DNA of 23,102 bases from a virus: positions 1 to 23,102 of IMG/VR virus record IMGVR_UViG_3300049460_000170; one strand, given 5' to 3'. The translations under genes were made by a program, and so were the position numbers. The notes under the pieces are model-generated. The model did not search any database. It had not been told where the DNA came from and saw only the letters and a program-made list of their open reading frames with translations. Positions 2 to 15,678 of this stretch are shown in pieces (within the stretch, counting starts at the first letter, position 1; every line of letters starts with the position of its first letter).

Positions 2-1708
2 CTGCGCCAGAAACTGCTGCTGGCCAACGCCGGTTCCATCAACCTGCAGATCGATGAGATCGGCTCGAACCTGATCAACAACATCGAGGTGCTGAACCTG
101 TTTCTGGAGCTGTATGACCAGGGGATGGTCAAGCAGAAGCTGACGAAGAACACCGCCGAGAACACCCGGGGTGAAGAGGTCGACGGCAAGACGCCTTCGA
201 ACATGCTGCTGTTCGGTACGCCGAGCAAGCTGCTGGACGGCGGGCAAACCGAGAACGAGTTCTACTCGTTCCTGGAGACGGGCTATGCCCGTCGCTGCCT
301 GTTCGGCTGGGGCCAGCAGGACCGCAAGGCGTCGCACTCGATGTCGGCCGCCGAGATTTACCAGCGACTGACCCAGCCCACCAACAACGCCGTAGTGGCG
401 AAGTGGGCGGCACACTTCCACAAGCTGGCGGACCCCGCCATGTTCGGCTGGAAGATGACGGTCGATGATGCCGTGGCCATCGAGCTGCTGCAGTACAAGA
501 TCTTCTGCGAGCAGTCGGCCGATGCCATGGCCGAGCACGAGGAGATCAAGAAGGCGGAGCTCGGTCACCGCTACTTCAAGGCCCTCAAGCTCGCCGGTGC
601 ATACGCGTTCTGCGACGAATCGAACGAGGTCGAGATGGATCACCTGAAGCAGGCGATCCTGCTCGTCGAGGAAAGCGGGGCTGCGTTCCAGTCGATCCTC
701 AACCGTGAGAAGGCTTACGTGAAGCTGGCGAAGTACATCGCCACCTGCGGCTCGGAAGTCACCCACGCGGATCTGCTCGAAGCGCTGCCCTTCTACAAGT
801 CGGGCAATGCCGCACGCAACGAGATGATGAGCCTGGCGACTGCCTGGGGCTACAAGAAACACATCATCATCAAGAAGTTCTATATCGACGGGATCGAGTT
901 CTACAAAGGTGAGACTTTGCAGGAGACGGACCTCGATGAACTGTTCCTCTCGTACGGGGAGCACTGGGCCTACAGCTATCAGGGCGAGAAGGTGCCGTTC
1001 GACCAGCTCCACCTGCTGACCCAGGCAGCCCAGGAAGACGGCAGCGCCATGCACTGGTGCAACCACTTCCTGAAGGGTGGCCACCGGGCCGAGGAGAACG
1101 TCATTGCCGGTTTCAACCTGGTGGCGATCGACGTGGATGAAGGTGTCACGCTGGAAACGGCGCATGAACTGATGAAGGACTTCCGGTTCATGACCTACAC
1201 CACCAAGCGCCACACGGACGAGACCAACCGCTTCCGGCTGCTGCTACCCATCAACTACGTGCTGGAACTGGACTCCGAGGACTACAAGGAGTTCATGAAT
1301 AACATCATGGCGTGGCTGCCGTTCAAGACGGACGAATCCGCGAACCAGCGAAGCAAGAAGTGGGAGACGTTCGCCGGCGGGAAGTTCCACTACAACATGG
1401 AAGGCGAGATCCTCGACGCACTACGGTTCATTCCGAAGACCACGAAGAATGAGCAGCATCTGAACGAGATGAAGTCGATCGCCTCGATGGACAACCTGGA
1501 GCGCTGGTTCGCCCAACGCATTGCCACCGGCAACCGGAACAACAACCTGCTGAAGTATGCAATGGCACTGGTCGACTCGGGCATGGATCTAATGGCCGTC
1601 AACCAGCAGCTCACGGCATTCAACGGCAAGCTGAACAATCCGCTGTCGGAGGAAGAACTGCGTTCGACCATCATGGTCTCGGTCGCCAAGCGTTATCAAC
1701 GTCAGTAA
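2..1708 (+). CDS. N4-type primase: ATPase-like part plus AEP primase domain (5' partial)
   Basis: The reading frame is open to the left edge, so the N-terminus lies outside the window; the GTG at 89 is not the real start. An ATPase-like part comes first, with a Walker-B-like LQIDEIG at bases 44-64, resembling DUF3987 phage ATPases. Further on come signs of an archaeo-eukaryotic primase (AEP) fold: a metal-binding DVD (D codons at 1130 and 1136), then a K-R-H element (His codon at 1211) followed by RFRLLLP, as in BT4734/RepB-type primases. The last ~70 residues (GNRNNNLLKYA, then PLSEEELRSTI) look like a PriCT primase C-terminal domain. It would make RNA primers for phage replication. By position and content it corresponds to the N4 gp42/gp43 primase region. 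The family assignment is from motifs only; the AEP call is good, the ATPase call weaker. Confidence 0.8.
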   Translation: MRQKLLLANAGSINLQIDEIGSNLINNIEVLNLFLELYDQGMVKQKLTKNTAENTRGEEVDGKTPSNMLLFGTPSKLLDGGQTENEFYSFLETGYARRCLFGWGQQDRKASHSMSAAEIYQRLTQPTNNAVVAKWAAHFHKLADPAMFGWKMTVDDAVAIELLQYKIFCEQSADAMAEHEEIKKAELGHRYFKALKLAGAYAFCDESNEVEMDHLKQAILLVEESGAAFQSILNREKAYVKLAKYIATCGSEVTHADLLEALPFYKSGNAARNEMMSLATAWGYKKHIIIKKFYIDGIEFYKGETLQETDLDELFLSYGEHWAYSYQGEKVPFDQLHLLTQAAQEDGSAMHWCNHFLKGGHRAEENVIAGFNLVAIDVDEGVTLETAHELMKDFRFMTYTTKRHTDETNRFRLLLPINYVLELDSEDYKEFMNNIMAWLPFKTDESANQRSKKWETFAGGKFHYNMEGEILDALRFIPKTTKNEQHLNEMKSIASMDNLERWFAQRIATGNRNNNLLKYAMALVDSGMDLMAVNQQLTAFNGKLNNPLSEEELRSTIMVSVAKRYQRQ

Positions 1709-1717
1709 AGGACAAAC

Positions 1718-1993
1718 ATGCACTTCGGCAAAGCAATCGAACACATGAAGCACGGGGACGCCGTGGCACGTGAAGGCTGGAACGGGAAAGGCATGTTTGT
1801 CTACCTGGTTCCCGCCAATGCGTACCCGGCACAGACGGGCATCGCCAAGACCTACTTTGGCGAACAGGCCAGGGTGCCCTACGGTGCGTACTTCGCACTC
1901 AAGGGCGTCGACGACACCGTGAACACCTGGGTGCCGAGCATCACGGACTGTCTGGCGGAAGACTGGATGGTCGTGATCGACAGCGGTCGCTAA
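1718..1993 (+). CDS. tad2: Tad2-like (DUF2829) anti-Thoeris protein
   Basis: This 91-aa protein has the DUF2829 signature: an opening FGKAIEHMKHGDAVAREGWNG, then GMFVYLVPA, and a C-terminal LAEDWMVV. Its length is that of the family (about 90 aa). DUF2829 proteins include Tad2, which binds and sequesters the cyclic ADP-ribose signal made by the ThsB TIR protein, so that the Thoeris defence effector is not activated. A Shine-Dalgarno AAAGGA lies at 1706-1711, overlapping the stop codon of the primase gene, so the two are likely co-transcribed and coupled. Anti-defence activity is inferred from family membership; not all DUF2829 members have been tested. It has no catalytic residues, as expected for a ligand sponge. 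Confidence 0.82.
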   Translation: MHFGKAIEHMKHGDAVAREGWNGKGMFVYLVPANAYPAQTGIAKTYFGEQARVPYGAYFALKGVDDTVNTWVPSITDCLAEDWMVVIDSGR

Positions 1994-2003
1994 AAGCCAC
2001 ACA

Positions 2004-2041
2004 CCTTCAGTCCTTTCCTTGGTTCAAGGGAAGACTGAGGG
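2004..2041 (+). other. Long intergenic hairpin with 3-nt loop
   Basis: The left arm 2004-2021 pairs with the right arm 2025-2041 around the loop GTT (2022-2024). This gives about 17 base pairs with one bulged C (2013) and two wobble pairs. No T-run follows, so it is not a standard intrinsic terminator. It sits between the Tad2-like gene and the ATPase gene, 24 bases before the ATPase ATG and upstream of its ribosome binding site. An RNase III processing site, a stability element or an attenuator are possible; the sequence does not decide between them. Confidence 0.6.
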
Positions 2042-2064: not shown

Positions 2065-2826
2065 ATGAGTGAAGTAGCAGACGACACCGTTGACGCGGAT
2101 CTGATCAATGATCAGCTCATCCTCGTCGCCGGCTTCTCGGGTGAAGGCAAGAGCGCATCGCTGCGCCACATCCGCAACCAGGAGAAGTGGATGTACCTGA
2201 ACTGCGAAGCGGGCAAGCGTCTGCCGTTTCGCAACCAGTTCCAGAACTTCCGTATCACGGACCCGTACCAGGTCCACGAAGCGTTCGACCATGCCACGTA
2301 CGAGGCAACCGACACGCAGGGCATCATCATCGATTCGTCCACGTTCCTGATGGACATGTTCGAGTCGAACTACGTGCTCAACTCGGCCAACACCATGCAG
2401 GCCTGGGGCGCCTATGCCCAGTTCTTCAAGGTGCTGATGCAGCAGAAGGTCACCACCTTCGGCAAGCCCGTCATCGTCATCGCCCACCTGCTGGACGTGC
2501 TCGATGAAAAGAGCGCCGAGATGCGCACGAGCGTGCCCGTGAAGGGTTCGCTGAAGAACAACGGCATCGAGGCGTACTTCTCGACTGTCGTGGCTGCCAA
2601 GAAGGTTGCCGTCAAGGAACTGGAGAAGTTCGGCAGCAAGATGCTGGTGATCACCGATGAGGAGCGTGAGCTGGGTTTCAAGCACGTGTTCCAGACGCGC
2701 ATCACCAAGCAGACCACGGGCTTTCGCATCCGCAGCCCGATGGGCATGTTCGACAAGTCCGAGACGTACATCGACAACGACTGTCAGGTCCTGCTGGACC
2801 ACCTCACCGAGTTCTACGGTAACTGA
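2065..2826 (+). CDS. RecA-like P-loop ATPase (AAA_24/Sak4 type)
   Basis: This 253-aa protein has a Walker A motif GFSGEGKS at residues 23-30 and a Walker B GIIID at 86-90, followed by a polar SST sensor-like segment. PVIVIAHLLDV further on resembles the sensor strand of RecA-fold ATPases. Length and layout fit phage AAA_24 ATPases, some of which (Sak4) work with SSB in single-strand annealing and recombination. The gene lies directly before the SSB gene, which supports such a role, and position matches N4 gp44. A purine-rich AGGAGAAGGA precedes the ATG. The exact activity (annealing, helicase loading or other) cannot be decided here. Confidence 0.78.
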   Translation: MSEVADDTVDADLINDQLILVAGFSGEGKSASLRHIRNQEKWMYLNCEAGKRLPFRNQFQNFRITDPYQVHEAFDHATYEATDTQGIIIDSSTFLMDMFESNYVLNSANTMQAWGAYAQFFKVLMQQKVTTFGKPVIVIAHLLDVLDEKSAEMRTSVPVKGSLKNNGIEAYFSTVVAAKKVAVKELEKFGSKMLVITDEERELGFKHVFQTRITKQTTGFRIRSPMGMFDKSETYIDNDCQVLLDHLTEFYGN

Positions 2827-2886: not shown

Positions 2887-3666
2887 ATGAGCCTGTTTGG
2901 AAACCTGAAGAGCGAAGGCCTCGAAGAAGCAACCGATCGTCTGGGTGGCGGCTTCGGCGCCATCGAGACGAACATCTACAGCGGCATCATCAAGGCACTC
3001 TACGCCGGCCAGTCGGCACAGGGCGCACGCAACGTGACGCTGATCACTGACTTCGGCGGCCGCGAGTACCGCGAGACGATCTACATCACGAACCGTGCCG
3101 GTGAGAACTGGTTCGCCGCCAAGGACAAGGACGGCAAGGCAACGGGCAAGAAGGCACCGCTGCCGGGCTTCACGCTCGTCGACGACATCTGCCTGATCGC
3201 CACGGGCAAGCCGCTCGCGGAACAGGAAGCCGAAGACAAGGTGGTCAAGGTCTACGACGCGGAAGCCCAGAAGGAGCTGCCGAAGTCGGTGCCGATGATC
3301 GTCGAGGCAATCGGCAAGCCGATTTCGCTGGCCATCCAGAAGACGCTCGAAAACAAGAGCGTCAAGGAAGGCGACGTGTACGTGCCGACGGCGGAAACGC
3401 GTGAAGTGAACAACTCCGAAAAGGCGTTCGACACCGACACGAAGATGAGCGTCGTCGAAGCCAAGGCGGGTGCCGAGAAGCCGGCCTTCTGGGATGCCTG
3501 GCTCGAAAAGAACAAGGGCAAGACGCGTGACAAGCGCACGTTGAAGGAAGGCGAAGCGGGTGCCGCCGGTGCGCCGCCCAAGGCACGTGCTGCAGGTTCG
3601 GCCACGCCCCCGGCTGCCAACCAGGCAGCACCGCGCAAGTCGCTGTTCGGCAAGCAGGCTGCGTAA
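2887..3666 (+). CDS. ssb: N4-type single-stranded DNA-binding protein and likely late-gene activator
   Basis: The protein has 259 aa, against about 265 for N4 SSB (gp45), and lies in the same place: after the ATPase and before the convergent vRNAP gene. Residues ~15-190 look like a compact beta-rich domain. Residues ~195-245 form a charged, Ala/Gly/Pro-rich linker, and the basic tip ends PRKSLFGKQAA. N4 SSB is needed for replication and recombination, and through residues at its C-terminus it activates host sigma70 RNA polymerase at late promoters. A similar motif, SLFGNLK, occurs at the N-terminus (residues 2-8). The Shine-Dalgarno is weak and purine-rich. The assignment rests on position, size and tail; I cannot run a profile search. 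Confidence 0.78.
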   Translation: MSLFGNLKSEGLEEATDRLGGGFGAIETNIYSGIIKALYAGQSAQGARNVTLITDFGGREYRETIYITNRAGENWFAAKDKDGKATGKKAPLPGFTLVDDICLIATGKPLAEQEAEDKVVKVYDAEAQKELPKSVPMIVEAIGKPISLAIQKTLENKSVKEGDVYVPTAETREVNNSEKAFDTDTKMSVVEAKAGAEKPAFWDAWLEKNKGKTRDKRTLKEGEAGAAGAPPKARAAGSATPPAANQAAPRKSLFGKQAA

Positions 3667-3677: not shown

Positions 3678-4235
3678 TTGCGCATCCAGGTCGCAGGCAT
3701 GGACCCCTCAATGAGGCATTGGGGGTCCGCTGAAGCCACACTCGATATGGACTCGGGTGTACTTGACATCCCCGTGCTGTCCCTCTGTGAACCAGAGGAC
3801 ATCAAGGGCAAGCAGGTACGCCAGAACTCCAATGATCTCCACCTCGCCAAGGTGCTCTATGAATACGCCATGCCCATCGCCAGACGGGCCAAGGTGATCT
3901 TCGTAGAGGTTCCCGTTGGCTCGCAGTCGGCTGCCGGCATGAAGGCCTATGGCCTGTGCGTCGGTGTGCTGGGTGCATTACGGGCCGAGGGGCACGAGAT
4001 CATCGAGGTGACGGCCACCGAAGTGAAGCGCTGCTTCACGGGGGATCCGAATGCGACAAAGAAGCAGATGATCGCCCAGGGCGTGCAGGATTACCCGCAC
4101 GCCAACTGGCCCCGCCACAATGGCAGGGTCAGTGAATCGAAGGCCGAGCACTGTGCTGACGCCATTGCCGCCATCCATGCCGGGGTGAACACCCCGATGT
4201 TCCAGAATCTCGTGCGACTTTTCGCAAAGGTATAA
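3678..4235 (+). CDS. RuvC-like Holliday junction resolvase
   Basis: This 185-aa protein has the RNase H-fold resolvase motifs in order: Asp9 in GMDPS, Glu77 in FVEVP, and the C-terminal His158/Asp161 pair in AEHCADAIAAI. A basic ATKKQ segment (126-130) lies before the last motif, as in RuvC proteins. The His-x-x-Asp pair replaces the Asp-x-x-Asp of E. coli RuvC; Thermus thermophilus RuvC also uses His at that site, so the enzyme is probably active. It would resolve branched replication and recombination intermediates before packaging. The start is TTG with a strong Shine-Dalgarno, which may lower expression relative to SSB. The gene follows SSB by 11 bases, probably in one operon. Confidence 0.9.
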   Translation: MRIQVAGMDPSMRHWGSAEATLDMDSGVLDIPVLSLCEPEDIKGKQVRQNSNDLHLAKVLYEYAMPIARRAKVIFVEVPVGSQSAAGMKAYGLCVGVLGALRAEGHEIIEVTATEVKRCFTGDPNATKKQMIAQGVQDYPHANWPRHNGRVSESKAEHCADAIAAIHAGVNTPMFQNLVRLFAKV

Positions 4236-4242
4236 ACGCATC

Positions 4243-4722
4243 ATGCAGATCATCATCGTCCAGTCGGAAATCGAACAGGCCATCCGCAACCACATCAACA
4301 GCCTGTTGAATGTGAAGGACGGCAACCGCATCGAAATCACCCTGTCGGCTACACGCGGCGAAGACGGCTTCAAGGCCACCATCGACATCGTGGCGGCCGA
4401 TGAGCCGGCACCCGCTGGCGCCAAGTCGGACACGAAGGCGGAAACGGCTGTCACGGCTTCGCGCACGTCGGTGCAGGTGTCTCCGCCCTCTCTCACCACC
4501 ATCACCCAGGTGACGAAGAAAGACCTGGATCTGCCGTCGGATCCGGCACCGGCTGTCCTGGCTGACGTGACGGATGTCGAGGACACCAGCAAGGGTGCAG
4601 AACCCCCGGCCGATGCCGCACCGTCGTCGTCGGAACCGGTCCAGGCGGAAGCAGCCGGTGAAGTCAAGCCGGCCGGTCGCAGCCTGTTTGCCGGCCTGAA
4701 GAAGCCGGTGAACGCATCGTAA
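4243..4722 (+). CDS. Hypothetical protein with disordered acidic body and SLFxGLK tail
   Basis: I do not recognise a family for this 159-aa protein. Residues 1-52 look folded (alternating strands and helix, with IEQAIRNHINSLL). Residues ~53-140 are Ala/Pro/Asp/Glu/Ser/Thr-rich and probably disordered. The tip, RSLFAGLKKP at residues 146-155, closely resembles both ends of the SSB in the same operon (SLFGNLK at its start and RKSLFGK at its end). The start ATG lies 7 bases after the resolvase stop, with AAAGG upstream. A small folded head, flexible linker and short basic tip suggest a protein that docks onto a common partner; that role is inference. Confidence 0.7.
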   Translation: MQIIIVQSEIEQAIRNHINSLLNVKDGNRIEITLSATRGEDGFKATIDIVAADEPAPAGAKSDTKAETAVTASRTSVQVSPPSLTTITQVTKKDLDLPSDPAPAVLADVTDVEDTSKGAEPPADAAPSSSEPVQAEAAGEVKPAGRSLFAGLKKPVNAS

Positions 4723-4723
4723 G

Positions 4724-4918
4724 ATGAAACTGGGTGCGATCCTCACCATAGGGATCGTGATGATGGCGATCGTGATTGCCGTTACGGTCGCCATCATCGC
4801 TGCAGCACCCTACATGGCCATTGGCATCGTGATGCTGGTAGGCGGCTATGTAGCGCTTGCACTGGACAAGGAGGATGATCCCCCTCCTGGACCGCCTGGT
4901 CCGCCCACTGTGCAATAA
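4724..4918 (+). CDS. Small membrane protein with proline-rich tail
   Basis: The protein has 64 aa: two hydrophobic segments (about residues 4-29 and 31-48), then an acidic DKEDD and a PPPGPPGPP tail. ATG begins one base after the stop of the upstream gene and no clear Shine-Dalgarno is visible, so translation is probably coupled. It is the last gene before the bidirectional terminator. The topology could suit an inner-membrane protein involved in lysis or superinfection exclusion, but no family is recognised and the function is unknown. Confidence 0.6.
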   Translation: MKLGAILTIGIVMMAIVIAVTVAIIAAAPYMAIGIVMLVGGYVALALDKEDDPPPGPPGPPTVQ

Positions 4919-5002: not shown

Positions 5003-5036
5003 AAAAAACCCCCAGTTTCGGCTGGGGGTTTTTCTT
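5003..5036. terminator. Bidirectional intrinsic terminator between convergent blocks
   Basis: The arms CCCCCAG (5009-5015) and CTGGGGG (5022-5028) enclose the loop TTTCGG. An A-run (5003-5008) precedes the hairpin and a T-run (5029-5033, then more T to 5039) follows, so it works in both directions. It ends the rightward replication operon and the leftward vRNAP transcript, whose stop codon is at 5044-5046. Confidence 0.93.
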
Positions 5037-5043
5037 TTTGAAC

Positions 5044-8000
5044 TCAGTGCACGAGATTGACCCATGGGTTGAGCATCGGGGCGTGCAGCACCTGCCCGAA
5101 GCCGAAGCTGAAGTTCAGCTGCCCATCAGCCAGTTTCGTGAACACGTTGTCCGTCAGCGGCGAGCCGATGGAGCCAAGGAAGGTAGGGGCAGGCGCCAGT
5201 CCGGCCAGCAGCGCATGCACCGGGTTGTTGCGGATCATCGAGAGTGCCACCTTCGATGAGCGGATCTTGAAGTTGTAGAACCACAAGAGACCCATCGACT
5301 CCAGGTAACCCCGGAAGCGGCCACGCAGACGGTCATAGTTGACGAACTCTTCCGTCACGCGGGACAGGGCATGTTCCTTCGACTTGCCCTGGCGCTTCGT
5401 CAGGTCATCGTAAAGAATCGCCTTGGCGAGGAAGTCACCATACTCGGTGGCCGTCTGCATACCCCGGTAGAGCGCCGTGTCCTTGGTGATCAGCGCGTAG
5501 CGGCCCGCTGCCTTGATACCGGCCGGCAGTTTGTTCACCTGGCTCTCGATGTAGCTGTAGAGCTTGCCCGAGGCGAGCTCCACATCCTCGATGCCTGCCT
5601 GCCCACCCGAGATCGCACTGAACTCGCCTGCCTGGATCAGCGGCCAGATCGACATGCGCTTGTGGCTGTCCTCGATCGACTGGATCTCGGCGGCCAGCTT
5701 GCGTCCGGCCACCACGTCATTGCGCCCCTGGGCGGCACGCAGCTCGGCATCAGCCTCGATGCGACGCACTTCCGACTTCACATAGGCCTGCACTTCCGCC
5801 GTCTTCTTCGGCATCCCCGTGATGATGGACTTGACGGGCACTCCACGCGCCGCCAGCTGGTAGGCATTCGAGATCATGTTAGTGACGGGCACCACCACCG
5901 ACTTGACGACGATCATCGTCTTCACGTCCGAGATGAACGACTGGAAGGTCTTCTCGGCATTGACCGTGTACTGGTAGGCCTTGTTGCCGAAGACCGACAT
6001 CGCCAGGCGCTTGAAGCTCTCCTGCGTCTGGTTGTTCCAGCGGCTCGTGCCCGTCCACGCATCACCGACCGACGCTGCCCGGTAACCAAGCGCATCGTTG
6101 AGCATGTCCCGGCGCACGTAGAACGACTGGCCGAACGTCTGCTCGATACGCTGCTTCATCTGCGGCGTGATGAGCTGCACGGCGTCATGCAGCACGGGAT
6201 CCTTCGCCTGCTCACGCAGATCGAACACGTTGATGTACTGGTCCTGGTTGCTGGTGCCGTTCTTCATGTCAGCATCGTACATATCGTAGAGCCGGTCGAT
6301 CAGCGCGTCATTGTAGAGGGCGGCCTTGGCCTCTTCCACCTGACGGCCACGCCACACCCCCACCATCTCATGGAGCTGGGTGTTGAACGACAGCCGCTGC
6401 ATCTGGAACGGATCGACCGAGCGTTCGAATGCCACCACCTGACCACCGCCGTCATAGACGGGAAGCAGGTGCTCACGGCTGCCTTCGATCCCGGCCTGCA
6501 TGCCGCGCACGGCCCGCTGCACGATCTTCGGATCGGTGATGCGGCCCGCCGTCATATCTCCGACCGTGTAGCCCGTTGCCACATCGACACCGCCCGCCGT
6601 CTGGCGCACGTTCTGCAGGATGCCCTGGGCAAAGACGTTGCGGCCCGAGACGGGCGCGAAGTAGTAGCCCCGGCTGATCTTGCCCGCCTCCGCCACGCTG
6701 CCGCCGTAGTCACCGACGCGCACGTACGAGCGCTCGGCCAGGTGCGCGTAGTTCGCATCGTCGGCCACGATGAGCGACTCCCCGGCACCCTGCAGGGACG
6801 GGATGTTGCCCTTGTAGTGGTTGAACAGCGACCGGTCGGACTGCACGGCCCGGTTCTGTTCTTCCACACGCTGACCCTGCAGGTAGGCCAGTGCGAACTG
6901 CATGCCTGCGCCTTCCTTCGATACCAGCGTCGACACGTCGAGCTGGTGCTTGAGCTCGAGGTGACCCAGTGCGTAGAGTGTGGTCAGCATGTCGATGTTC
7001 TTCTGGAACGTCTTCATGTCGGCCACTTTCGCGGACTTGCGGTTCACATTCGTCTCACCCAGCAGGCGGGAGATGGCCACTGCATTCCTCAGCAGGTTGG
7101 AGCTGGTCTTGCCGTTCATCATGTAGTCGGCCAGCTGCTGCATCTTCGTCTGGTAGCGGCTCCAGTTCGGCTTGTCCGCTGCCTGGATGGCCTTCTCCAG
7201 TTCCTGGATCTTGGCCTTCAGGTCGGCCGGGTGTTCGAGTACCTTCAGGATTTCATCCTGGTTCATGCCCTGAGCCAGGGAGGCAAGATCGGACTTGCCC
7301 ATCGCCCGGTGCAAGAGGCTCCACTCGTCATCCGTCAGCGTGCGGCTGAACTTGCTGGCGATCACCTTGGGCACTTCCTCGCGGAACTGCTGACGGTCCT
7401 GGGCAATCATCGTGCGTACCAGCTTGATCATGTCGTAGACGCTGGCGTTGGACACCGTGCGGCCGACCAGATCGGCAATCGCCTCGGTGAACGGCTTGAA
7501 GCCCTTCACCTTGTTGAGCGCCGTCAGCACCCCCTCGGCAATCTTGCCGGCGTGCTCTTCCGAGACGACGGCCGCCGTCAGCCGGGCAGCCGAAGCCAGC
7601 AGGTTCGTGGCCTTGTTGTCGTACTTCGCATCAAGCGCTTCGGCCTTGCCGACGGCCTTGTCGGCCAGATCGTTCATGCCCTGCACCACGATGCCATTGC
7701 TGCGGTCGACCACATCCCCCACCGGGTTGGCGAGCTGGTCAAAGAAGCTCTGACGGTCCTGGGCAATGGCGATCATGCGATCGGACAGGGCATCCACCGC
7801 TTCCCGCACCGTCTGGCTGCCAAGGTCACCCGAGAGACGGCGGGCCAGATTGTCCATGACCGCCTGGGCGCCGTTCTCCAGCAGTGCATCGATCCGGCTT
7901 TCGGCGTTCGACTTTTCGCCCTTCGGCACGGGCATGTCGTGCAGCACGCCACGGAACTGGTCGTTCGTCATGGCCAGCGCCATGAAGGCGGGCAGCAGCG

Positions 8001-11000
8001 TCGAGCGGCCTGCCCCGTCAATCTTTTGCAGGCTGTTGCCGATGATGGCGTCGTACTTCTGCTGTGCGTAGTAGCGCTCGGCCTGCGGATCGGCAGCATG
8101 GGGATCCATCAGGTCTTCGACCGTCAGGTTCTTTTCGACATGCGTCCACAGCTGTTGCATGCGCGTGAGCACGTTGCCGTCGAGATGGGCCTCGGTGGCG
8201 AGCGCCGACTGGATCTTGCTGAAGGTGGTCAGCTCCTGCATCGTCATCGGGAACGCTGCGGCGAAGTGGCTCGCTACCTGCGCACCCAGTTGCAGGGCAT
8301 CGGACACCTTCGTCTTGCGCCGGCTCTCTTCACGCGGATCCTGCACATCGAGGTAGTCCGCTACCTTGCGGTCGAGCGTGTCTTCGAGCGCGGAGAGGCG
8401 ATCGTTCAGGCCATACGTGGTCGACTGGAAGAGTGCCGTATCGCGCATGACAGCCGAGCGGCTCGGTTGCGACTGCAGTACGACGGCCGTGTTGAATAGC
8501 AGGTTGCTGAACATGTCATTGGCTGGCACGACTTCCCTGCCCCAGACCAGTTGCTTCAGGTGCTCGATAACCTTCCGTGCCAGCTGAACCAGGGGATGCG
8601 CAGCCGTGCGTTCCTGCAGACGTGCGAGATCCTGGTTGGCCAGCGCCCACGCCATGAACTCATTGAGTCCCTGTGCCTTCTGCGAGGCACGTTCCAGATC
8701 GGGATTGTTCAGGTGACCATTGATGGCCGTCACCGCATCGGTGTAGGCCTGCTGGAGTTTCGGAGAAACGTTGTTCAGCCGGTCGGACATCGACAGGAAC
8801 TGCGTCATCAGCTTTTCAATGTTGCCGATGGCACCCTTGATGACGCCCGACTGCGGGCCTAGGTTGTCTCCTGCGTAGTGAGCGAGCACCGTCTCGAAGG
8901 TCGAGGCATGGATCAGCTCATGCGTGAGCGTCTCACTGGACGGATTCATCAGGTAAATCTCCTGACGACCCGGCATCATGAAGCCCTTGGTGCGCTCATC
9001 CGACAGCCAGGACGCATCGACTGCATTGCCACCCTGGTTCTGGTTGTAGGCAAGCAGTTGTTCCCGCGTACCAAAGATCACCTTGTAGCCCTGGGCTGCC
9101 AGTGACTGGCTGATCTGCTGGAGAATCTTTGACTGAACCGAGGGAATCTTGGATCCGATCTGACCGAGCAGATTCTTCAGATCAGCAAAGTTCAGCACAC
9201 GTGCGCCCGACGCCGTTTCGAGTCCGGCTTTCTGCAACTCAGGTGCAATGTTCTGCGTCTTCGGTGCCGACTCACCGAGGAGCTTGTCCCGCTCTTCGTT
9301 GTAGAGTTCGGACATGCGGGTAGCGACTTCCTCTTCGCTGCCGGTGAGCATCTCCTTGCCCTGGATCTGGTACGGGGAAGAAGCGGCCGCCATCTGGTCC
9401 ACTGACACATTGACACGGCTCAGTGCACGGTGACGGGCTTCCGCTTCCAGTGCACCATCGGCCACCGCTTTCTGCAGGTCGAGCATGGCATCCCGGACAT
9501 CCTGCAGACCAAACTCCTGCGTGGTCTTGAGCGGACCGAACAGTGCCTTCACCAGATCCTTGTGCTGGTCGCCGTGCGGTTCCACGTCCTTGAGCGAGAT
9601 GTCCTTGACGAACTTGCCATAGGCCTCGGAGACGGCCTGCAGCGGGTTGCCCATCCACGACTGCCACACTGCCTGGTTGGCCTGTTCGGAGCCTTCCACG
9701 ATCTTGTCCAGCGGCATGTTCATGCCGTCGAAGATCTTCAGCGTGCCGCCGATCGCCCCCTGCATGGTGGAGATGAGCTGCATCATCTTGCCATCCCCCA
9801 TGCCGATGTTCATGAAGGGGATGCCCGCCACACCCGAGTTTTGCGGGCCATAGGCGGTAGCCGTCGCACCCATCTTGTTGTCGAACGAGGTGGCGTAGCC
9901 TTCACCCTTCAGGTTGGCCTTGTCGGCGCCTGCCACATAGAAGGCCTGGCCCGGCGCCTTGATGACGGGAGCCAGGTGAGACACAGAGCCCAGGATCTGG
10001 TCCTGTTCCTTCTGGCTCAGGTACTCACCTGCCACATAGTCCGGACCCTTGGCCTTCTCCGCAAGTGCTGCTTCCACGGCACGCTGGTAGGCGTATTGCT
10101 GCATGATCGACGGGATCTGCGTGGCCTTGCGCACGAGCTCCGCCGAGTCGAAGAGTGAATGTCCGACCACTTCCTTGATCGACTCACGCATCGGCTCGAC
10201 GAAGAGGCTCAGCATGTTCTGTCGCATCACCTTCAGTGCTTCCGGTTCAAACGTCCACGTCTGCAGCTTCTGTGTCACTGAATCGACGCCCGAGTCTTCC
10301 ATCGTGCGGGAGCCGTCCGGATTGGTCGTGACCTTGTTCAGGATCAGCGCATTCAGTGCATTCATCAGCATGTCCCGTTTGGCGATGGCTTCTTCGCCTT
10401 CACCGAACAGGGTTGCTGGTGTGCGGCCATTAGCCAGCGCATCGGAGAACTGCTGGTAGACCTTCTCCACCACCATGCCCGTGAGCTTGCCGGCGATGCC
10501 CATCGCACCTGAACCGTAGATCGTGATGGTCAGCGGATTCTTGGCAATGCCCCGGTCCAGATCTACCGTGTCCTTGCCGTCGAACTTCACCACGTCACCG
10601 AGCATCAGGTTCATCAGGTTGAGCAGATGGTTCTGCTGCGTCTTCACCTCTTCCGGCAGGCTCTGGCGCATGTCGGCAATACGCGTGCGCAGATCGTCGG
10701 ACGACGCCTTGTACAGGTCGACACCATCCTGCTGGCGGTAGGCGGTCGAGGTCTGGTCCTTGAGGCCACCAAACCACAGGCCACCCCGGGCCATGTTCTT
10801 CACCCAGCTCCTGGTGAAGCGACCCGTGGAGAGCAGCGCCATTGCATTGACCGGGCCGTTGGTCATGCCGTCGGCCTCGAGGTAGAGCTGCGTCTGGAAC
10901 CCCTTGCGGTCAGCCTTGCTCGCATCGAGGTAGCGGGCGTACTCCATCAGCCCATGCAGCTGCACGAACGACGGATCGGAGCCAAGGGAAGCCTTGAGCT

Positions 11001-14000
11001 CACTGGCCATGTCCTCGGTCATCTTGCCCGTCTGCTGGAACTGGCGCAGCACATCGACAGCCGGTGCGAACTTGCCGGTGAGGTCTCCCAGCGTCTTGTC
11101 CAGCATCATGGCGAACGGCATGTTGTGCACCTTCGTGCCGATCGCCTGACCGACACCCAGCATGAAGGCCTGCATGTGCTCCGACGTGCCCAGGTCGAGC
11201 GTGCTCATCGTGGGCAGCACGACTTCACGCATGAGCTTCGAAGCCTGCGGATTGTAGCGGCCCAGCATCTGCAGACGGGATACCCGGCTCATGTTGTAGC
11301 CGTAGCGGATGTTCACCTCTTCAGGCGCCTTGCCAGTCTGTTCGGCATGGCCTTCGACAGCCGACATCAGATCCTCGAACGTGCTGAATGCCGAGACGAT
11401 CGCCTGACGCTGGCCCTGCTTGGAGTTGAAGTCGTTGACGTTCAGCTTCTCCTTGTCGACCATGCCCGGCCCGAAGATATCAGCCAGCTTCTCCAGCGTG
11501 AGTGCACGGTAGAGCGACGCCATACGCGGGTTCACCCGGAACGGTGTGGCCTGTTCGTTGGCGATCATGTCCAGCTGCTCGGCCGTATTCTGCACGAGCG
11601 GATTGCGCATCTGGGCCTTGGCCACAGGCGGACGGTCATCACCCAGGTAATGGGTCAGTTCCGGCGTCTTCGCTACCACCCGTTCGATCGCATCCGGGAA
11701 CGAGCGGATGTTCTTCATGTCCTTCATGTTGGCGGTCACCAGCACAGGCAACGTCTTGATCTTCAGGCCCTTGGCCGACTCGCCATCGGGGATCACATCA
11801 CCCGTCTCCGTGTTCACGCGGATCGACTTCTCCGCAAGCAGTGGCATCTTCTCGTAGCGCTGGGTCTCGTCATTCCAGCCGGTGACAGTCGTATCCATCA
11901 TCGTGCGGATGACTTCGGCCGCCATCGCCTGCGGGATGCCCTTCACGTACCCGTCGGCCACATTGCGGTTGCCATCCAGTCCCCAGTAGGTCTGGATCTT
12001 CTGAGCCAGGGAGGTAACGGCATCGATGCGGGACACCCCTGAATTCAGGTGATTGACGATCGACTCGTCGACCTTGGCATCATCGGCAAAGCCGAATGCG
12101 CTCTTCACGTCCGACTCGTCGAGCACGCCGCCATACCCATTGGACGACAGGATCCACTGCAGACCCGCAATGGAAGCCGTCTCGGCCAGCGCCTGGTTCA
12201 GCTTCAGACCACCACCCTCCTGCTCTTCCGTCAGGTTGAGCAGCTTGCCATTGCGCCAGCGGTTGGCGTTGTCGGCATTCTTGTTGCCACTGACCTTTTC
12301 TTTCAGGAAGGTCTGCAGGTGATCGTTGAGCTCATTGACCATGCTGGGCACCATGCCCAGGAACCAGCGGTAGTCACGGGCGACTTCATCCGTCAGGCGT
12401 GCGGGCGAACCCTTGCCACCGTCACGGGCAAAGTTACCCGACGAAGCGAGCGACTCCTTGACCTGTTCGAGCGGCTGCTGCGAAGTAGCCAGTGACGACT
12501 TCGCTTCCTTCGGCAATGAGAACGCTTCGGTGAACTTGTTGCCCGTCTTCGGTTCGACGAGATCCGGGTAGACGGCAGCCAGGCCCTTCTTCTCCTTCAC
12601 TGGTTCAACTTTGGTTTCAACTTTCGCTTCGACAGGCGCAGCCTTCTCCGCTACCGGCTTCACTACCGGTTCAGCAGGCTTTGTCCCGGGTTGTGCCGGA
12701 GCAACTTCCGGCTTCGATTCCGTAACAGTCTGTTTCGGTGCGGGCTGAGTCTCTTGGACCGGTGCCCCAACCGGTTTAGACTCGGCCTTGACTTCTGTTG
12801 TGTCCGGCGTCGCTGCAGTCTGGGCCGTCTGGACATTCCCATTGACCGAACCGACCGAGCGCTTGCCCTGTGCCCACTCCTGCGCTACCTTCGCGGGCGT
12901 GTCACCCGTGAGCGACGGGTCCAGTGCCACCTGATCCAGATGACCAACCTTCAGCTCCGGATACGCCGACGCCAGCGCATTGTGCATCTCCACGAGGGCA
13001 TGCGCTTCCGCCCCGACAGTCTGGGCATTATCAATCGAGCCGGGTTTGTGTGGCGTGACACCGAAACCCTTCTTCGAGGTCAGCCACTGGGACTTGTCAG
13101 GCGAGATGTAGTTGTACTGGAGCGAGTTACCCGTATTCGCATTCCGGCCCTGTGCCGCGATCTGCGCATTGATGGCCTTGACCTTGTTCTGGATCGTCTG
13201 CGCGAACAGGCCAAAGTTGGTCAGCGCAGTACGGGCACCTTCCATATCACCCGACGCATACGCCGAACGGATATTGGCGAGGTGTGTCGCAGCCGAATCC
13301 TTGCCTTCTGGCGATTCATTGGCGGGGGCCGTTGAGACCTGCTTGGCCACGATGTCTTTCGCAGCCGTCTGACCATTCGCCGCGAGCTGGTCGACATACG
13401 CCTGACGACCTTTCAGGACAGCCAGTGCCGTGCGGATCGCCGCACTCTGGTAGTTCGACAGCTGCACCTTACCGGCCGACTGCATGGCCATCACCGTCTC
13501 CAGCGACTTCGCTGGCACGCGGTCAGGTGCGAGATCGGCTACCGCCGCCACCGTGTGAATCGCCTGCTGGCCTTCCGGCGTTGCGGCTGACTCCTCGGTC
13601 ACATGAGGCACTTCGATCTTTTCAGCGGCCTGCTGGGCAGCCTTGGCTCCCTTGCGGGCACCCGGCGACTGCTGGTAGGTGCTGACCAGATCGCTGATGT
13701 CCTGCACGAACTGCTGCGCTTCGGGCGGCAGGTGCTGGATGTCTTCGGGCGACTGGCTCAACGTGTCCATCACGTTGTTCAGACTGGCCTTCAGGGCGCC
13801 ATGCACCAGCAGCCGGTCCTGCATCGAGTTGTTCTCGTCCCACATGTAGCGGTCCATGTTCTGGAACGCATGCACGCGGGTCGATGCATCACCGACGGCA
13901 TCCGTGATCTGCTGGGGCAGACCCTGCAGCTCATCCGGATGGAAGGCCATCGAGTCGTGGACTTCCTGCACGTACTTCGCACCCGTGGCCTTGGTCTCTT

Positions 14001-15678
14001 CCGGCAGGTTGGCTGCCTGGATCGAGTCCTGTGCCTGCTGGGCAGCGACGGGCGCATTCTGGGCCACCTCATCGGCCGCCGTGCTGATGTTCTGGTCTGA
14101 GACGGGGGACGCTGCTTCATTGGCGGCCGCCACCTTGTCGCCCCGCTTCGCAGCGAGATCCACCAGCGGTTTGGCCACAGCACCCGCCACACCTGCCGCA
14201 CCCTTGACAGCGGACGTTGCCACCGAGCCGAGATTCAGTGCGGCACGGGTTGCATGCGTGAGCACCGCACCCGGACCCTGCACCGCACCAGCGGAGGCCA
14301 TGCCATACAGGCCACCGAGACCGGCCTGCTCACCGACACCTTCGAGCAGATCCTGGTTGGGGTTCGCTCCCGAGCGTTGCGTGCCCAGGTTCTGGGCGAG
14401 CTGACCCGTACCTGACTGGATCGTTTCTTCCAGTCCTTCCTTGAGGATGTTCTGTCCTGCTTCGCGCAGTGATGGCACCGAGAACGGATGCGCCTCGAAC
14501 TTCTCGACCAGCTTGCCCGTCATCATGGCGGCCGGTCCCTGCACGGCAGCTGCGAACATGCCTGCCCGGTTGGCAATGAACGTCTTCGCCTGATCCGGGC
14601 TCATGCCCTGGTTGTCGACCAGATCGACGTACGTGGGCGAGTCCTTGCGCAGGTCGGTATCCGACTTGCCCATGATGTCGGCCGCCGTCTGCTGGTACGC
14701 GCCGCCCGCTTCCGTGAGACCGATCGAACCCGGCATGGCCACATCGTGAGCCAGGGGAGCAATCCTGGCTGCCACCTGTTCACCCTTCAGGCCAACGCCT
14801 AGGAGTCCCAGGTGTTCAGCACCATCAATAGCGGCCTTGGCACCGAGACCAATGCCCTTGCCGATCGGGCCAGCCGTGACCAGCGAGCCGATGCCCTGTG
14901 CCAGACCGTCCGTTGCGACCGTGCCATCGGAGAGTGCATTGCTGACGGCCGTTCCCGCATCCCGACCAATCCGGCGCAGACCGGCGACCAAGGAGCCGTC
15001 CGTCTTCGTTTCCTGTTCCTGCAGCGCCTTGTTGTCCCGGTAGCCGAGTTCGTTCGTTGCCGCGTTCACCCGCTGGTGAGCGGACAGTGCATCCGACTCC
15101 AGGTTGCCCTGTACGAAGTCATTGAGTGACTTCACGGCAGAAGCGGCCTGTGTGCCGGCATCCTTGTTGATAAGGCCGAGACCCAGCGCACCGATACCGC
15201 CCACCGAGTTGGCCACACCGAGACCTACACCGGCACCGAAGTCACCGATTGCCTGGGCGTAGTTACGTGAACCCGTGGCATCCGTCTGCACGGCGCCTTG
15301 TGCCTGCAGTCGGGCCGAGATCAGGCGCATGCCCTGGTCATAGCCGTACTTGGCGATGAGATCTGCACCCGGCAGTGAGGCCATGTCGGCATCAATCTGC
15401 GTGGGCATCGTCTTCATGCCTGCGCCTGTCTGGCGGGATAGCACATCGGAGTACAGCTGATCCAGAGAAGGGATACCGTTCTGTTGGGCAACACCGGCCT
15501 TCTTCTGGTCGGCGGTGACAGCAAGGGAAGCCTTCTTTGCATCAGCCGTGGCAGCGACAGACTGCTGGATAGTGGGCTGGACTACAGATTCCCCAGGACT
15601 GAGTGAGCCTTGAGGAGCAACGGGAGCCGGAGTGTTCCCGTTGAGATACTGGTCGAAAAGATCTTGTGCAGAGGGCAT
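5044..15678 (-). CDS. N4-type virion RNA polymerase (vRNAP), 3,544 aa
   Basis: This is the giant DNA-dependent RNA polymerase that N4-like phages package and eject to transcribe early genes from hairpin promoters. The T7-family motifs sit at N4-like spacing: SRVSR (1464-1468; Arg1468 matches the T/DxxGR arginine), motif A EADGMTNGP (Asp1603), motif B R1709-x3-K1713-x7-Y1721-G, and motif C IFDGMN (Asp1984). Trp1141 in NANRW lies where N4 contacts the promoter hairpin. Residues 1-950 form an N-terminal region with glycine-rich hydrophobic stretches. A Pro/Lys/Glu-rich linker (950-1031) leads into the polymerase (about 1032-2130). The remainder is the C-terminal region, needed in N4 for packaging; it contains a zincin-like motif HELIHA (2253-2258) with Glu2340. 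There is no cysteine in the whole protein. The start ATG has AGGA 7 bases upstream, and the gene is bounded by terminators on both sides. Confidence 0.98.
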   Translation of the reverse strand: MPSAQDLFDQYLNGNTPAPVAPQGSLSPGESVVQPTIQQSVAATADAKKASLAVTADQKKAGVAQQNGIPSLDQLYSDVLSRQTGAGMKTMPTQIDADMASLPGADLIAKYGYDQGMRLISARLQAQGAVQTDATGSRNYAQAIGDFGAGVGLGVANSVGGIGALGLGLINKDAGTQAASAVKSLNDFVQGNLESDALSAHQRVNAATNELGYRDNKALQEQETKTDGSLVAGLRRIGRDAGTAVSNALSDGTVATDGLAQGIGSLVTAGPIGKGIGLGAKAAIDGAEHLGLLGVGLKGEQVAARIAPLAHDVAMPGSIGLTEAGGAYQQTAADIMGKSDTDLRKDSPTYVDLVDNQGMSPDQAKTFIANRAGMFAAAVQGPAAMMTGKLVEKFEAHPFSVPSLREAGQNILKEGLEETIQSGTGQLAQNLGTQRSGANPNQDLLEGVGEQAGLGGLYGMASAGAVQGPGAVLTHATRAALNLGSVATSAVKGAAGVAGAVAKPLVDLAAKRGDKVAAANEAASPVSDQNISTAADEVAQNAPVAAQQAQDSIQAANLPEETKATGAKYVQEVHDSMAFHPDELQGLPQQITDAVGDASTRVHAFQNMDRYMWDENNSMQDRLLVHGALKASLNNVMDTLSQSPEDIQHLPPEAQQFVQDISDLVSTYQQSPGARKGAKAAQQAAEKIEVPHVTEESAATPEGQQAIHTVAAVADLAPDRVPAKSLETVMAMQSAGKVQLSNYQSAAIRTALAVLKGRQAYVDQLAANGQTAAKDIVAKQVSTAPANESPEGKDSAATHLANIRSAYASGDMEGARTALTNFGLFAQTIQNKVKAINAQIAAQGRNANTGNSLQYNYISPDKSQWLTSKKGFGVTPHKPGSIDNAQTVGAEAHALVEMHNALASAYPELKVGHLDQVALDPSLTGDTPAKVAQEWAQGKRSVGSVNGNVQTAQTAATPDTTEVKAESKPVGAPVQETQPAPKQTVTESKPEVAPAQPGTKPAEPVVKPVAEKAAPVEAKVETKVEPVKEKKGLAAVYPDLVEPKTGNKFTEAFSLPKEAKSSLATSQQPLEQVKESLASSGNFARDGGKGSPARLTDEVARDYRWFLGMVPSMVNELNDHLQTFLKEKVSGNKNADNANRWRNGKLLNLTEEQEGGGLKLNQALAETASIAGLQWILSSNGYGGVLDESDVKSAFGFADDAKVDESIVNHLNSGVSRIDAVTSLAQKIQTYWGLDGNRNVADGYVKGIPQAMAAEVIRTMMDTTVTGWNDETQRYEKMPLLAEKSIRVNTETGDVIPDGESAKGLKIKTLPVLVTANMKDMKNIRSFPDAIERVVAKTPELTHYLGDDRPPVAKAQMRNPLVQNTAEQLDMIANEQATPFRVNPRMASLYRALTLEKLADIFGPGMVDKEKLNVNDFNSKQGQRQAIVSAFSTFEDLMSAVEGHAEQTGKAPEEVNIRYGYNMSRVSRLQMLGRYNPQASKLMREVVLPTMSTLDLGTSEHMQAFMLGVGQAIGTKVHNMPFAMMLDKTLGDLTGKFAPAVDVLRQFQQTGKMTEDMASELKASLGSDPSFVQLHGLMEYARYLDASKADRKGFQTQLYLEADGMTNGPVNAMALLSTGRFTRSWVKNMARGGLWFGGLKDQTSTAYRQQDGVDLYKASSDDLRTRIADMRQSLPEEVKTQQNHLLNLMNLMLGDVVKFDGKDTVDLDRGIAKNPLTITIYGSGAMGIAGKLTGMVVEKVYQQFSDALANGRTPATLFGEGEEAIAKRDMLMNALNALILNKVTTNPDGSRTMEDSGVDSVTQKLQTWTFEPEALKVMRQNMLSLFVEPMRESIKEVVGHSLFDSAELVRKATQIPSIMQQYAYQRAVEAALAEKAKGPDYVAGEYLSQKEQDQILGSVSHLAPVIKAPGQAFYVAGADKANLKGEGYATSFDNKMGATATAYGPQNSGVAGIPFMNIGMGDGKMMQLISTMQGAIGGTLKIFDGMNMPLDKIVEGSEQANQAVWQSWMGNPLQAVSEAYGKFVKDISLKDVEPHGDQHKDLVKALFGPLKTTQEFGLQDVRDAMLDLQKAVADGALEAEARHRALSRVNVSVDQMAAASSPYQIQGKEMLTGSEEEVATRMSELYNEERDKLLGESAPKTQNIAPELQKAGLETASGARVLNFADLKNLLGQIGSKIPSVQSKILQQISQSLAAQGYKVIFGTREQLLAYNQNQGGNAVDASWLSDERTKGFMMPGRQEIYLMNPSSETLTHELIHASTFETVLAHYAGDNLGPQSGVIKGAIGNIEKLMTQFLSMSDRLNNVSPKLQQAYTDAVTAINGHLNNPDLERASQKAQGLNEFMAWALANQDLARLQERTAAHPLVQLARKVIEHLKQLVWGREVVPANDMFSNLLFNTAVVLQSQPSRSAVMRDTALFQSTTYGLNDRLSALEDTLDRKVADYLDVQDPREESRRKTKVSDALQLGAQVASHFAAAFPMTMQELTTFSKIQSALATEAHLDGNVLTRMQQLWTHVEKNLTVEDLMDPHAADPQAERYYAQQKYDAIIGNSLQKIDGAGRSTLLPAFMALAMTNDQFRGVLHDMPVPKGEKSNAESRIDALLENGAQAVMDNLARRLSGDLGSQTVREAVDALSDRMIAIAQDRQSFFDQLANPVGDVVDRSNGIVVQGMNDLADKAVGKAEALDAKYDNKATNLLASAARLTAAVVSEEHAGKIAEGVLTALNKVKGFKPFTEAIADLVGRTVSNASVYDMIKLVRTMIAQDRQQFREEVPKVIASKFSRTLTDDEWSLLHRAMGKSDLASLAQGMNQDEILKVLEHPADLKAKIQELEKAIQAADKPNWSRYQTKMQQLADYMMNGKTSSNLLRNAVAISRLLGETNVNRKSAKVADMKTFQKNIDMLTTLYALGHLELKHQLDVSTLVSKEGAGMQFALAYLQGQRVEEQNRAVQSDRSLFNHYKGNIPSLQGAGESLIVADDANYAHLAERSYVRVGDYGGSVAEAGKISRGYYFAPVSGRNVFAQGILQNVRQTAGGVDVATGYTVGDMTAGRITDPKIVQRAVRGMQAGIEGSREHLLPVYDGGGQVVAFERSVDPFQMQRLSFNTQLHEMVGVWRGRQVEEAKAALYNDALIDRLYDMYDADMKNGTSNQDQYINVFDLREQAKDPVLHDAVQLITPQMKQRIEQTFGQSFYVRRDMLNDALGYRAASVGDAWTGTSRWNNQTQESFKRLAMSVFGNKAYQYTVNAEKTFQSFISDVKTMIVVKSVVVPVTNMISNAYQLAARGVPVKSIITGMPKKTAEVQAYVKSEVRRIEADAELRAAQGRNDVVAGRKLAAEIQSIEDSHKRMSIWPLIQAGEFSAISGGQAGIEDVELASGKLYSYIESQVNKLPAGIKAAGRYALITKDTALYRGMQTATEYGDFLAKAILYDDLTKRQGKSKEHALSRVTEEFVNYDRLRGRFRGYLESMGLLWFYNFKIRSSKVALSMIRNNPVHALLAGLAPAPTFLGSIGSPLTDNVFTKLADGQLNFSFGFGQVLHAPMLNPWVNLVH

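What the first reader, a model, noticed from the sequence alone, without database searches (positions are those of the whole stretch)
1718..1993. Tad2-like anti-Thoeris gene inside an N4-type replication operon
The 91-aa protein carries the DUF2829 signature with the GWNGKGMFV core and LAEDWMVV tail. Tad2 blocks Thoeris by capturing its cyclic ADP-ribose signal. Here it sits between the primase and the RecA-like ATPase, genes that are core in N4-like phages, so it looks like an accessory counter-defence gene carried in the replication operon. It would be made together with the replication proteins.
Basis: partly seen in the sequence, partly recalled or inferred. Interest (0 to 1): 0.75.

Follow-up and report, generated by a model that had tools for sequence, protein, structure and literature searches.

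The report
Phage sponge against Thoeris immune signals

Summary
Window 1718-1993 (+) encodes an intact 91-aa protein with the Pfam Tad2-like domain (E 2.2e-24). Its model (pLDDT 95) matches solved Tad2 structures far above anything else. It lies 9 bases after the primase stop and before a Sak4-like (RecA-like) gene in an N4-type operon.

One correction: the closest solved relative is Myroides ModTad2 with histidine-ADPR (PDB 9EIB; 55% identity), the type II Thoeris signal, not the cyclic-ADPR binder SPO1 Tad2 (38-45%). The window protein shares a supported 24-row clade with ModTad2 (97/97). That clade lacks a glutamine, beside the described pocket, that 83 of 91 other distinct domains have (0 of 24 in the clade). 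His-ADPR is therefore the likely ligand (about 60%).

The gene is accessory: 5 of 45 related primase-Sak4 gaps carry a Tad2, and a close relative's 74.7-kb record has none. Other N4-like phages, N4 included (gp49), carry Tad2-like genes elsewhere. Binding and anti-Thoeris activity are untested. New member of a known kind.

The parts
1718..1993 (+). Tad2-like sponge protein, 91 aa, single domain
1707..1712 (+). Likely ribosome-binding site AAAGGA, 5 bases before the ATG, overlapping the primase stop
   Evidence: Read; inference
2..1708 (+). N4-type DNA primase, 5' end outside the record; stop codon 9 bases before the Tad2 start
   Evidence: phrog_2135 2.9e-275; PriCT_1
2007..2038 (+). Hairpin with CTTTCCTTGGTT motif in the Sak4 leader, separating Tad2 from Sak4; recurrent in N4-like phages
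   Evidence: -24.6 kcal/mol for 1990-2064, z -2.4
2065..2826 (+). Sak4-like ssDNA annealing protein (RecA-like ATPase; N4 gp44 homologue)
   Evidence: phrog_124 1.1e-43
2887..3666 (+). N4-type single-stranded DNA-binding protein
   Evidence: phrog_743 1e-78
3678..4235 (+). RuvC-like resolvase
   Evidence: phrog_159 1.1e-34
5004..5033 (+). Intrinsic-terminator-like hairpin at the end of the operon, facing the vRNAP gene
   Evidence: 13 pairs, T tail; the number of such sites in the region (3) is not above shuffles (mean 3.9)
5044..15678 (-). Giant virion RNA polymerase gene (context)
   Evidence: tblastn match to the annotated vRNAP of Ochrobactrum phage ZX86

Best explanation
The gene encodes a Tad2-family sponge that binds and holds an ADP-ribose-derived alarm molecule made by host TIR (ThsB) enzymes on infection, so that the Thoeris effector is not switched on. 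Within the family it belongs to the ModTad2-like clade, so the most likely ligand is histidine-ADPR of type II Thoeris, not the glycocyclic ADPR of type I. It is probably translated from the middle-phase replication transcript. It is accessory cargo placed between the primase stop and the structured leader of Sak4. Shown here: family, fold, clade, conservation of residues in the described pocket elements, context, presence/absence pattern. Inferred: binding, ligand, tetramer, timing, protection.
For: PF11195 2.2e-24. Model pLDDT 95.2. Foldseek's first 24 PDB chains are all Tad2/AcrIIA7 family, led by ModTad2 with hisADPR (9eib_B, E 2.9e-11, 53% identity); the 25th has E 0.84. VIA-align Z 11.2-12.7 for the ten Tad2/AcrIIA7 entries, 5.5 for the next. 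L019 is 84 of 84 identical to ModTad2 chain 8v3e and sits with the window protein in a 24-row clade, support 97/97, without SPO1 Tad2. Residue 75: Q in 93 of 103 other domains, SPO1 among them, and in 0 of 25 of the clade (window I, ModTad2 V); P73 25 of 25 against 16 of 103; T70 21 of 25 against 1 of 103 (5 of 133 domains did not fit the pattern). In distinct sequences: Q in 83 of 91 against 0 of 24. The extra segment of AcrIIA7/HgmTad2 is absent. MoTad2 inhibits type II Thoeris by binding His-ADPR (stated in PMC13299392, passages). Tad2 lies in 5 of 45 primase-Sak4 gaps; the state of this slot changes at least 5 times on the quick primase tree; the 74.7-kb record of a close relative (L086, primase 84% identical) has no PF11195 match.
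Against: No binding or infection data. Only one member of the clade (ModTad2) has a known ligand, and the window protein is only about 55% identical to it (48-56% by the different aligners). The structural Z to SptTad2, ModTad2, AcrIIA7 and SPO1 Tad2 is tied (12.7-11.9), so the fold does not discriminate ligands. Ten of 103 domains outside the clade also lack the glutamine, and position 75 was picked after seeing the alignment. Pocket residues were mapped through a review's description of pocket elements, not from coordinates. The tree has only 86 columns and SPO1 is a long branch of unsure place. Sponges can bind several signals. The host and its defences are unknown.
Confidence: 0.6

Rival explanations
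1. It is a Tad2 sponge for glycocyclic ADPR (type I Thoeris), like SPO1 Tad2.
For: Same family and fold; SPO1 Tad2 sequesters 1''-3' gcADPR (PMC11722364, passages); the conserved residues are shared with SPO1.
Against: Lower identity to SPO1 (38-45%) than to ModTad2 (55%); SPO1 lies outside the supported clade (where SPO1 is a long branch of unsure place); SPO1 has Q at position 75, the window I.
Confidence: 0.2
2. It has a broad or different signal range: cyclic dinucleotides of CBASS, type IV N7-cADPR, or several at once.
For: HgmTad2/AcrIIA7 is solved with 1',2'-cADPR and cGG (PDB titles); the review says sponges can take several signals (PMC12043709, passages).
Against: The review places the dinucleotide site in an insertion between beta2 and beta5; the window protein lacks the extra segment seen in AcrIIA7 (alignments), which I take to be that insertion. 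SPO1 Tad2, also short, did not bind 3'3'-cGAMP.
Confidence: 0.12
3. It is an anti-CRISPR (AcrIIA7-type), as automatic annotation labels a relative in an N4-like phage.
For: AcrIIA7 is in the same family; Mimir124's homologue is annotated anti-CRISPR.
Against: AcrIIA7 itself is solved with cADPR and cGG; the window protein is closer to ModTad2 than to AcrIIA7.
Confidence: 0.03
4. It is a replication accessory factor that belongs to the operon, with no role against host defence.
For: Position inside the replication operon; purifying selection; N4 gp49 sits in the same operon.
Against: Present in only 5 of 45 gaps; no match in a close relative's 74.7-kb record; relatives in other phages lie near terminase, ribonucleotide reductase or lysis genes; every solved relative with a ligand named in its title carries a nucleotide signal.
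Confidence: 0.05

Closest known systems
ModTad2, prophage of Myroides odoratus (PDB 9EIB with hisADPR, 8V3E apo)
   Same: Full-length single-domain match, 55% identity, same supported clade, no Q at position 75, and Q39, T70, P73 shared
   Different: Comes from a Bacteroidota prophage; the window gene is in an N4-type replication operon
SPO1 Tad2 (gp34.65; PDB 8SME, 8SMF, 8SMG)
   Same: Family, fold, R18, W21, N22, W71, S74, D77
   Different: 38-45% identity; Q at position 75; outside the clade; binds gcADPR
AcrIIA7 / HgmTad2 and SptTad2 (PDB 8KBI-8KBK, 8WJD)
   Same: Family and fold
   Different: Carry an extra segment that the window protein lacks; 34-42% identity; W-L-A-S-Q-T-D loop
N4 gp49 (NC_008720 34003-34485)
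   Same: Tad2-like domain in the same operon of an N4-type phage
   Different: Lies before the vRNAP gene, behind an ~80-aa N-terminal module, has Q at position 75, outside the clade
Ochrobactrum phage ZX86 gene 63
   Same: 62% identity, single domain, same operon, same clade
   Different: Sits between SSB and the RuvC/RNase H-like gene
P015 of Sinorhizobium phage AP-20-A (PMC13299392, passages)
   Same: Tad2-like protein of a lytic podovirus, 50.5% identical to MoTad2, predicted by its authors to act on type II Thoeris; the phage is placed only distantly in Schitoviridae
   Different: 97 aa; not compared with the window protein here; 49.4-kb genome whose capsid and terminase genes group with Bacillota phages

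Membership tests
Tad2 family (PF11195) | Curated sequence profile above its cut-off over the full domain | tested here: met
   86.2 bits against 25; profile 1-73 of 73
Tad2 family (PF11195) | Tad2 fold | tested here: met
   Foldseek E 2.9e-11, VIA Z 12.4 to 9eib; next unrelated entry Z 5.5
Tad2 family (PF11195) | Conserved residues in the pocket elements (loop beta1-beta2, beta4, loop beta4-alpha3, alpha3) | tested here: met
   R18, G20, W21, N22, G23, W71, D77 invariant and S74 over 90% in the 70- and 68-row alignments, all kept; pocket elements as described in PMC12043709, placed on the model; contacts not measured
Tad2 family (PF11195) | Homotetramer with two ligand pockets | not testable with these tools
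   Only monomer prediction available
Tad2 family (PF11195) | Binds an immune nucleotide and rescues phage | not testable with these tools
   Needs biochemistry and infection assays
ModTad2-like, His-ADPR / type II Thoeris sponge | Clade membership with ModTad2 | tested here: met
   24-row clade, 97/97
ModTad2-like, His-ADPR / type II Thoeris sponge | Binds His-ADPR | not testable with these tools
   Inference from one solved relative
AcrIIA7/HgmTad2 dual sponge | Insertion said to carry the cyclic-dinucleotide site | tested here: not met
   Extra segment seen in 8kbi and 9kzr but absent in the query; that this segment is the review's insertion is my inference
Schitoviridae (N4-like) phage, as the carrier | vRNAP of about 3,500 aa plus N4 order of primase, Sak4-like and SSB | tested here: met
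   3,544-aa ORF and operon, order as in N4

The most novel reading that the evidence does not exclude
N4-like replication operons are a general docking place for swappable counter-defence modules. The window protein belongs to a Tad2 lineage tuned to His-ADPR, marked by loss of a near-universal glutamine beside the pocket. Two uncharacterised modules that occur fused to Tad2 and to each other, an ~80-aa N-terminal module and Phage_gp49_66 (PF13876), would be further, unrecognised anti-immunity domains.
Probability: 0.3. Interest if true: 0.6.

Novelty: new member of a known kind. Interest (0 to 1): 0.4.

Why it matters
It would put a probable type II Thoeris sponge into the replication operon of a large group of lytic phages, and show that Tad2-like genes, including gp49 of the model phage N4, are recurrent cargo of that operon. 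The clade and its residue-75 marker give a simple, testable rule for which Tad2-like proteins take His-ADPR and which take cyclic ADPR. It also cautions against labelling every DUF2829 protein as an anti-cADPR or anti-CRISPR protein.

Tried and rejected
Anti-CRISPR reading: AcrIIA7 is a family member, but the query is closer to ModTad2, and AcrIIA7 is solved with immune nucleotides. PADLOC gave no match up to E 1; NCBIfam gave none up to E 0.01.

Single acquisition in the primase-Sak4 slot: the best trees with the four close slot members, or with all six, held together are not rejected (p-AU 0.278 and 0.075), although the free tree puts L097 and L110 in another supported group. Repeated insertion at this very slot is suggested, not proven.

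Leader hairpin: a plain alignment of 15 hairpins gave no consensus structure, I think because stem and loop lengths vary; a per-sequence stem test was used instead. The motif pattern was written after looking at the leaders, so its enrichment over shuffles is inflated, and the leaders are not independent. Eight of the 26 leaders tested did not reach p<0.05: L085, L086, L087, L088, L089, L104, L107 and N4 itself (0.053); in L085-L088 the motif forms the 5' arm of the predicted hairpin. Twenty-one of 52 leaders have no motif. An exact version of the motif searched over six whole records was hardly more frequent than its backward control in two of them and absent from two.

The N-terminal module gave no convincing PDB fold (best Foldseek E 1.8, VIA Z 3.6). 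Rfam gave nothing in the window at gathering threshold. The primary papers on SPO1 Tad2, HgmTad2 and ModTad2 are not held, so pocket contacts could not be taken from them; their findings are cited through other papers. Position 75 was picked after comparing the clade with the rest, so it is a post hoc marker.

Full report
What is there. Window 1718-1993 (+) is an uninterrupted 91-codon ORF with ATG start. The start lies 9 bases after the primase stop codon, with AAAGGA just before it. Pfam gives PF11195 (Tad2-like) at 2.2e-24 over the whole domain. PHROGs gives phrog_872, phrog_1048 and phrog_30130 (unknown function), the window protein covering only the C-terminal part of each profile, and a weak phrog_643 hit. 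The gene evolves under purifying selection (dN/dS about 0.17 and 0.16 against L002 and L089, with dS near saturation) and has the G+C of its neighbours (0.61 against 0.58-0.63).

Context. Primase (phrog_2135), Tad2, Sak4-like ATPase (phrog_124), SSB (phrog_743), RuvC-like (phrog_159), two further ORFs (4243-4722 and 4724-4918) and a terminator-like hairpin at 5004-5033 are followed by a 3,544-aa vRNAP gene on the other strand. This is the N4 operon order (N4 gp43-gp50). The record is a 23-kb linear virus record. In N4 the replicative functions are transcribed in the middle phase by N4 RNAPII (PMC4496689, passages and section 6). Production of the Tad2-like protein at that time is inference.

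Structure and family. The AlphaFold2 model (68-row alignment) has mean pLDDT 95.2. Foldseek ranks ModTad2 with hisADPR first (E 2.9e-11); the first 24 chains are all of the Tad2/AcrIIA7 family and the next has E 0.84. VIA-align gives Z 12.7 SptTad2, 12.4 ModTad2, 12.2 AcrIIA7, 11.9 SPO1 Tad2: ties, against 5.5 for the next entry. So the family is certain, while the fold alone does not choose the ligand. The invariant R18, G20, W21, N22, G23, W71, D77 and near-invariant S74 fall in or at the edge of the loop beta1-beta2, beta4, loop beta4-alpha3 and alpha3 segments that a review names as surrounding the gcADPR pocket (PMC12043709, passages).

Which ligand. By sequence the window protein is nearest to ModTad2 (phmmer 3.7e-28 against 1.2e-16 for SPO1). 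IMG/VR locus L019 is identical to PDB 8v3e over 84 of 84 residues, and L147 (Myroides odoratus XSfan) encodes the same 84 residues, so ModTad2 itself could be placed on the tree. In a 50-row maximum-likelihood tree the window and ModTad2 share a 24-row clade (97/97) without SPO1 or the AcrIIA7-like rows (only 86 columns, and SPO1 is a long branch). Across 133 domains (128 fit the pattern used) residue 75, the first residue of alpha3 in the model, is Q in 93 of 103 outside the clade and in 0 of 25 inside it; P73 is 25 of 25 against 16 of 103 and T70 is 21 of 25 against 1 of 103. In distinct sequences the Q counts are 83 of 91 and 0 of 24. SPO1, SptTad2 and AcrIIA7 have Q there. A paper states that MoTad2 inhibits type II Thoeris by binding His-ADPR and SPO1 Tad2 inhibits type I by binding gcADPR (PMC13299392, passages). 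The extra segment of AcrIIA7/HgmTad2, which I take to be the insertion that the review links to dinucleotide binding, is missing. I therefore put His-ADPR first, at about 0.6, and note that one characterised clade member is thin support.

Accessory status. A primase-based scan of viral contigs gave 48 loci, some with identical primases. Of these, 45 include a Sak4 match, and Tad2 lies between primase and Sak4 in 5 of the 45 (L085, L087, L089, L097, L110). The slot's state changes at least 5 times on the quick primase tree, in which many forks are open. L086, whose primase is 84% identical, has only the 57-base leader in the gap, and its 74.7-kb record, of unknown completeness, has no PF11195 match. 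Over the 27 N4-like records searched, 12 have one; three of those 27 had been fetched by the Tad2 search itself, so the fraction is biased upward. L097 and L110 carry distant Tad2-like proteins (32% and 28% identity) in the same slot and in another supported tree group, although the AU test does not reject one origin (p 0.075).

Other places in N4-like genomes. Between SSB and RuvC: ZX86, L007, L020, L022, L024-L027. Before vRNAP: N4 gp49, Delftia RG-2014, Mimir124. Near and upstream of the terminase genes: QDWS595, RiverRider, Philippe, P184. Between ribonucleotide reductase and exonuclease: XC38.

What is in print. In the held library I found one paper on a comparable case: a MoTad2-like protein, predicted to act on type II Thoeris, in the lytic Sinorhizobium podovirus AP-20-A, which its authors place only distantly in Schitoviridae (PMC13299392, passages). 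The RG-2014 genome paper lists DUF2829 for gp64 in a table of domains (PMC5735904, passages). I did not find Tad2 in the N4 replication operon discussed there; most subscription papers are not held.

Verdict. A real, intact Tad2-family gene and a sensible counter-defence reading; ordinary in kind, with the ligand corrected from cyclic ADPR to probably His-ADPR.

Noticed in passing
window 2007-2038; primase-Sak4 leaders of L084-L140, N4 included (L138:3474-3501): A hairpin with a CTTTC(C/T)TTGG(T/C)T-like motif sits in the leader of the Sak4 gene: motif in 31 of 52 leaders against 5 of 5200 mononucleotide shuffles (pattern written after seeing the leaders). 18 of 26 distinct leaders have a stem around the motif better than shuffles at p<0.05 (N4 0.053). 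Stem score 8.5 or more in 22 of 31 leader sites against 11 of 84 motif sites elsewhere. Function unknown, perhaps translational or RNA-processing control. In the window, L085, L087 and L089 Tad2 lies between the primase stop and this leader.
   Followed up: partly
L084:3519, L085:4523, L088:4525: The same motif within an inverted repeat recurs about 1.5 kb upstream of the primase match, in an intergenic gap in L084.
   Followed up: no
N4 gp49 residues 1-82 (L138:8004-8249), AP1 (L146), L003-L037, L118, L165: An ~80-aa N-terminal module (RGW..GYLVEY..GYISWSP) precedes the Tad2 domain in 32 open frames, plus one frame with PF13876 too. No Pfam match in N4 gp49, Mimir124 or AP1 and no convincing PDB fold. 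The window protein lacks it.
   Followed up: partly
L138:7633-8004 (N4 gp48), L142:955-1638, L082:1940-2530, L008, L014: Genes like N4 gp48 (Phage_gp49_66, PF13876) occur in 20 of 136 loci with a Tad2 domain (local profile), within 600 bases in 18. Tad2, the N-terminal module and this family occur fused in every pairing, with all three in one open frame in L014 (open frames, not all annotated genes), which hints at a shared role.
   Followed up: partly
L138:8004-8486: The model phage N4 carries a Tad2-like protein, gp49 (PF11195 8e-24), labelled only DUF2829 in its record.
   Followed up: partly
L140:7235-8234 (Mimir124): Annotation calls both the PF13876 protein and the Tad2-like protein anti-CRISPR; the Pfam matches are PF13876 and PF11195.
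   Followed up: partly
L112:7696-8060, L126, L119, L100: Other N4-like phages have different small open frames in the primase-Sak4 gap, so the gap may be a general cargo site.
   Followed up: no
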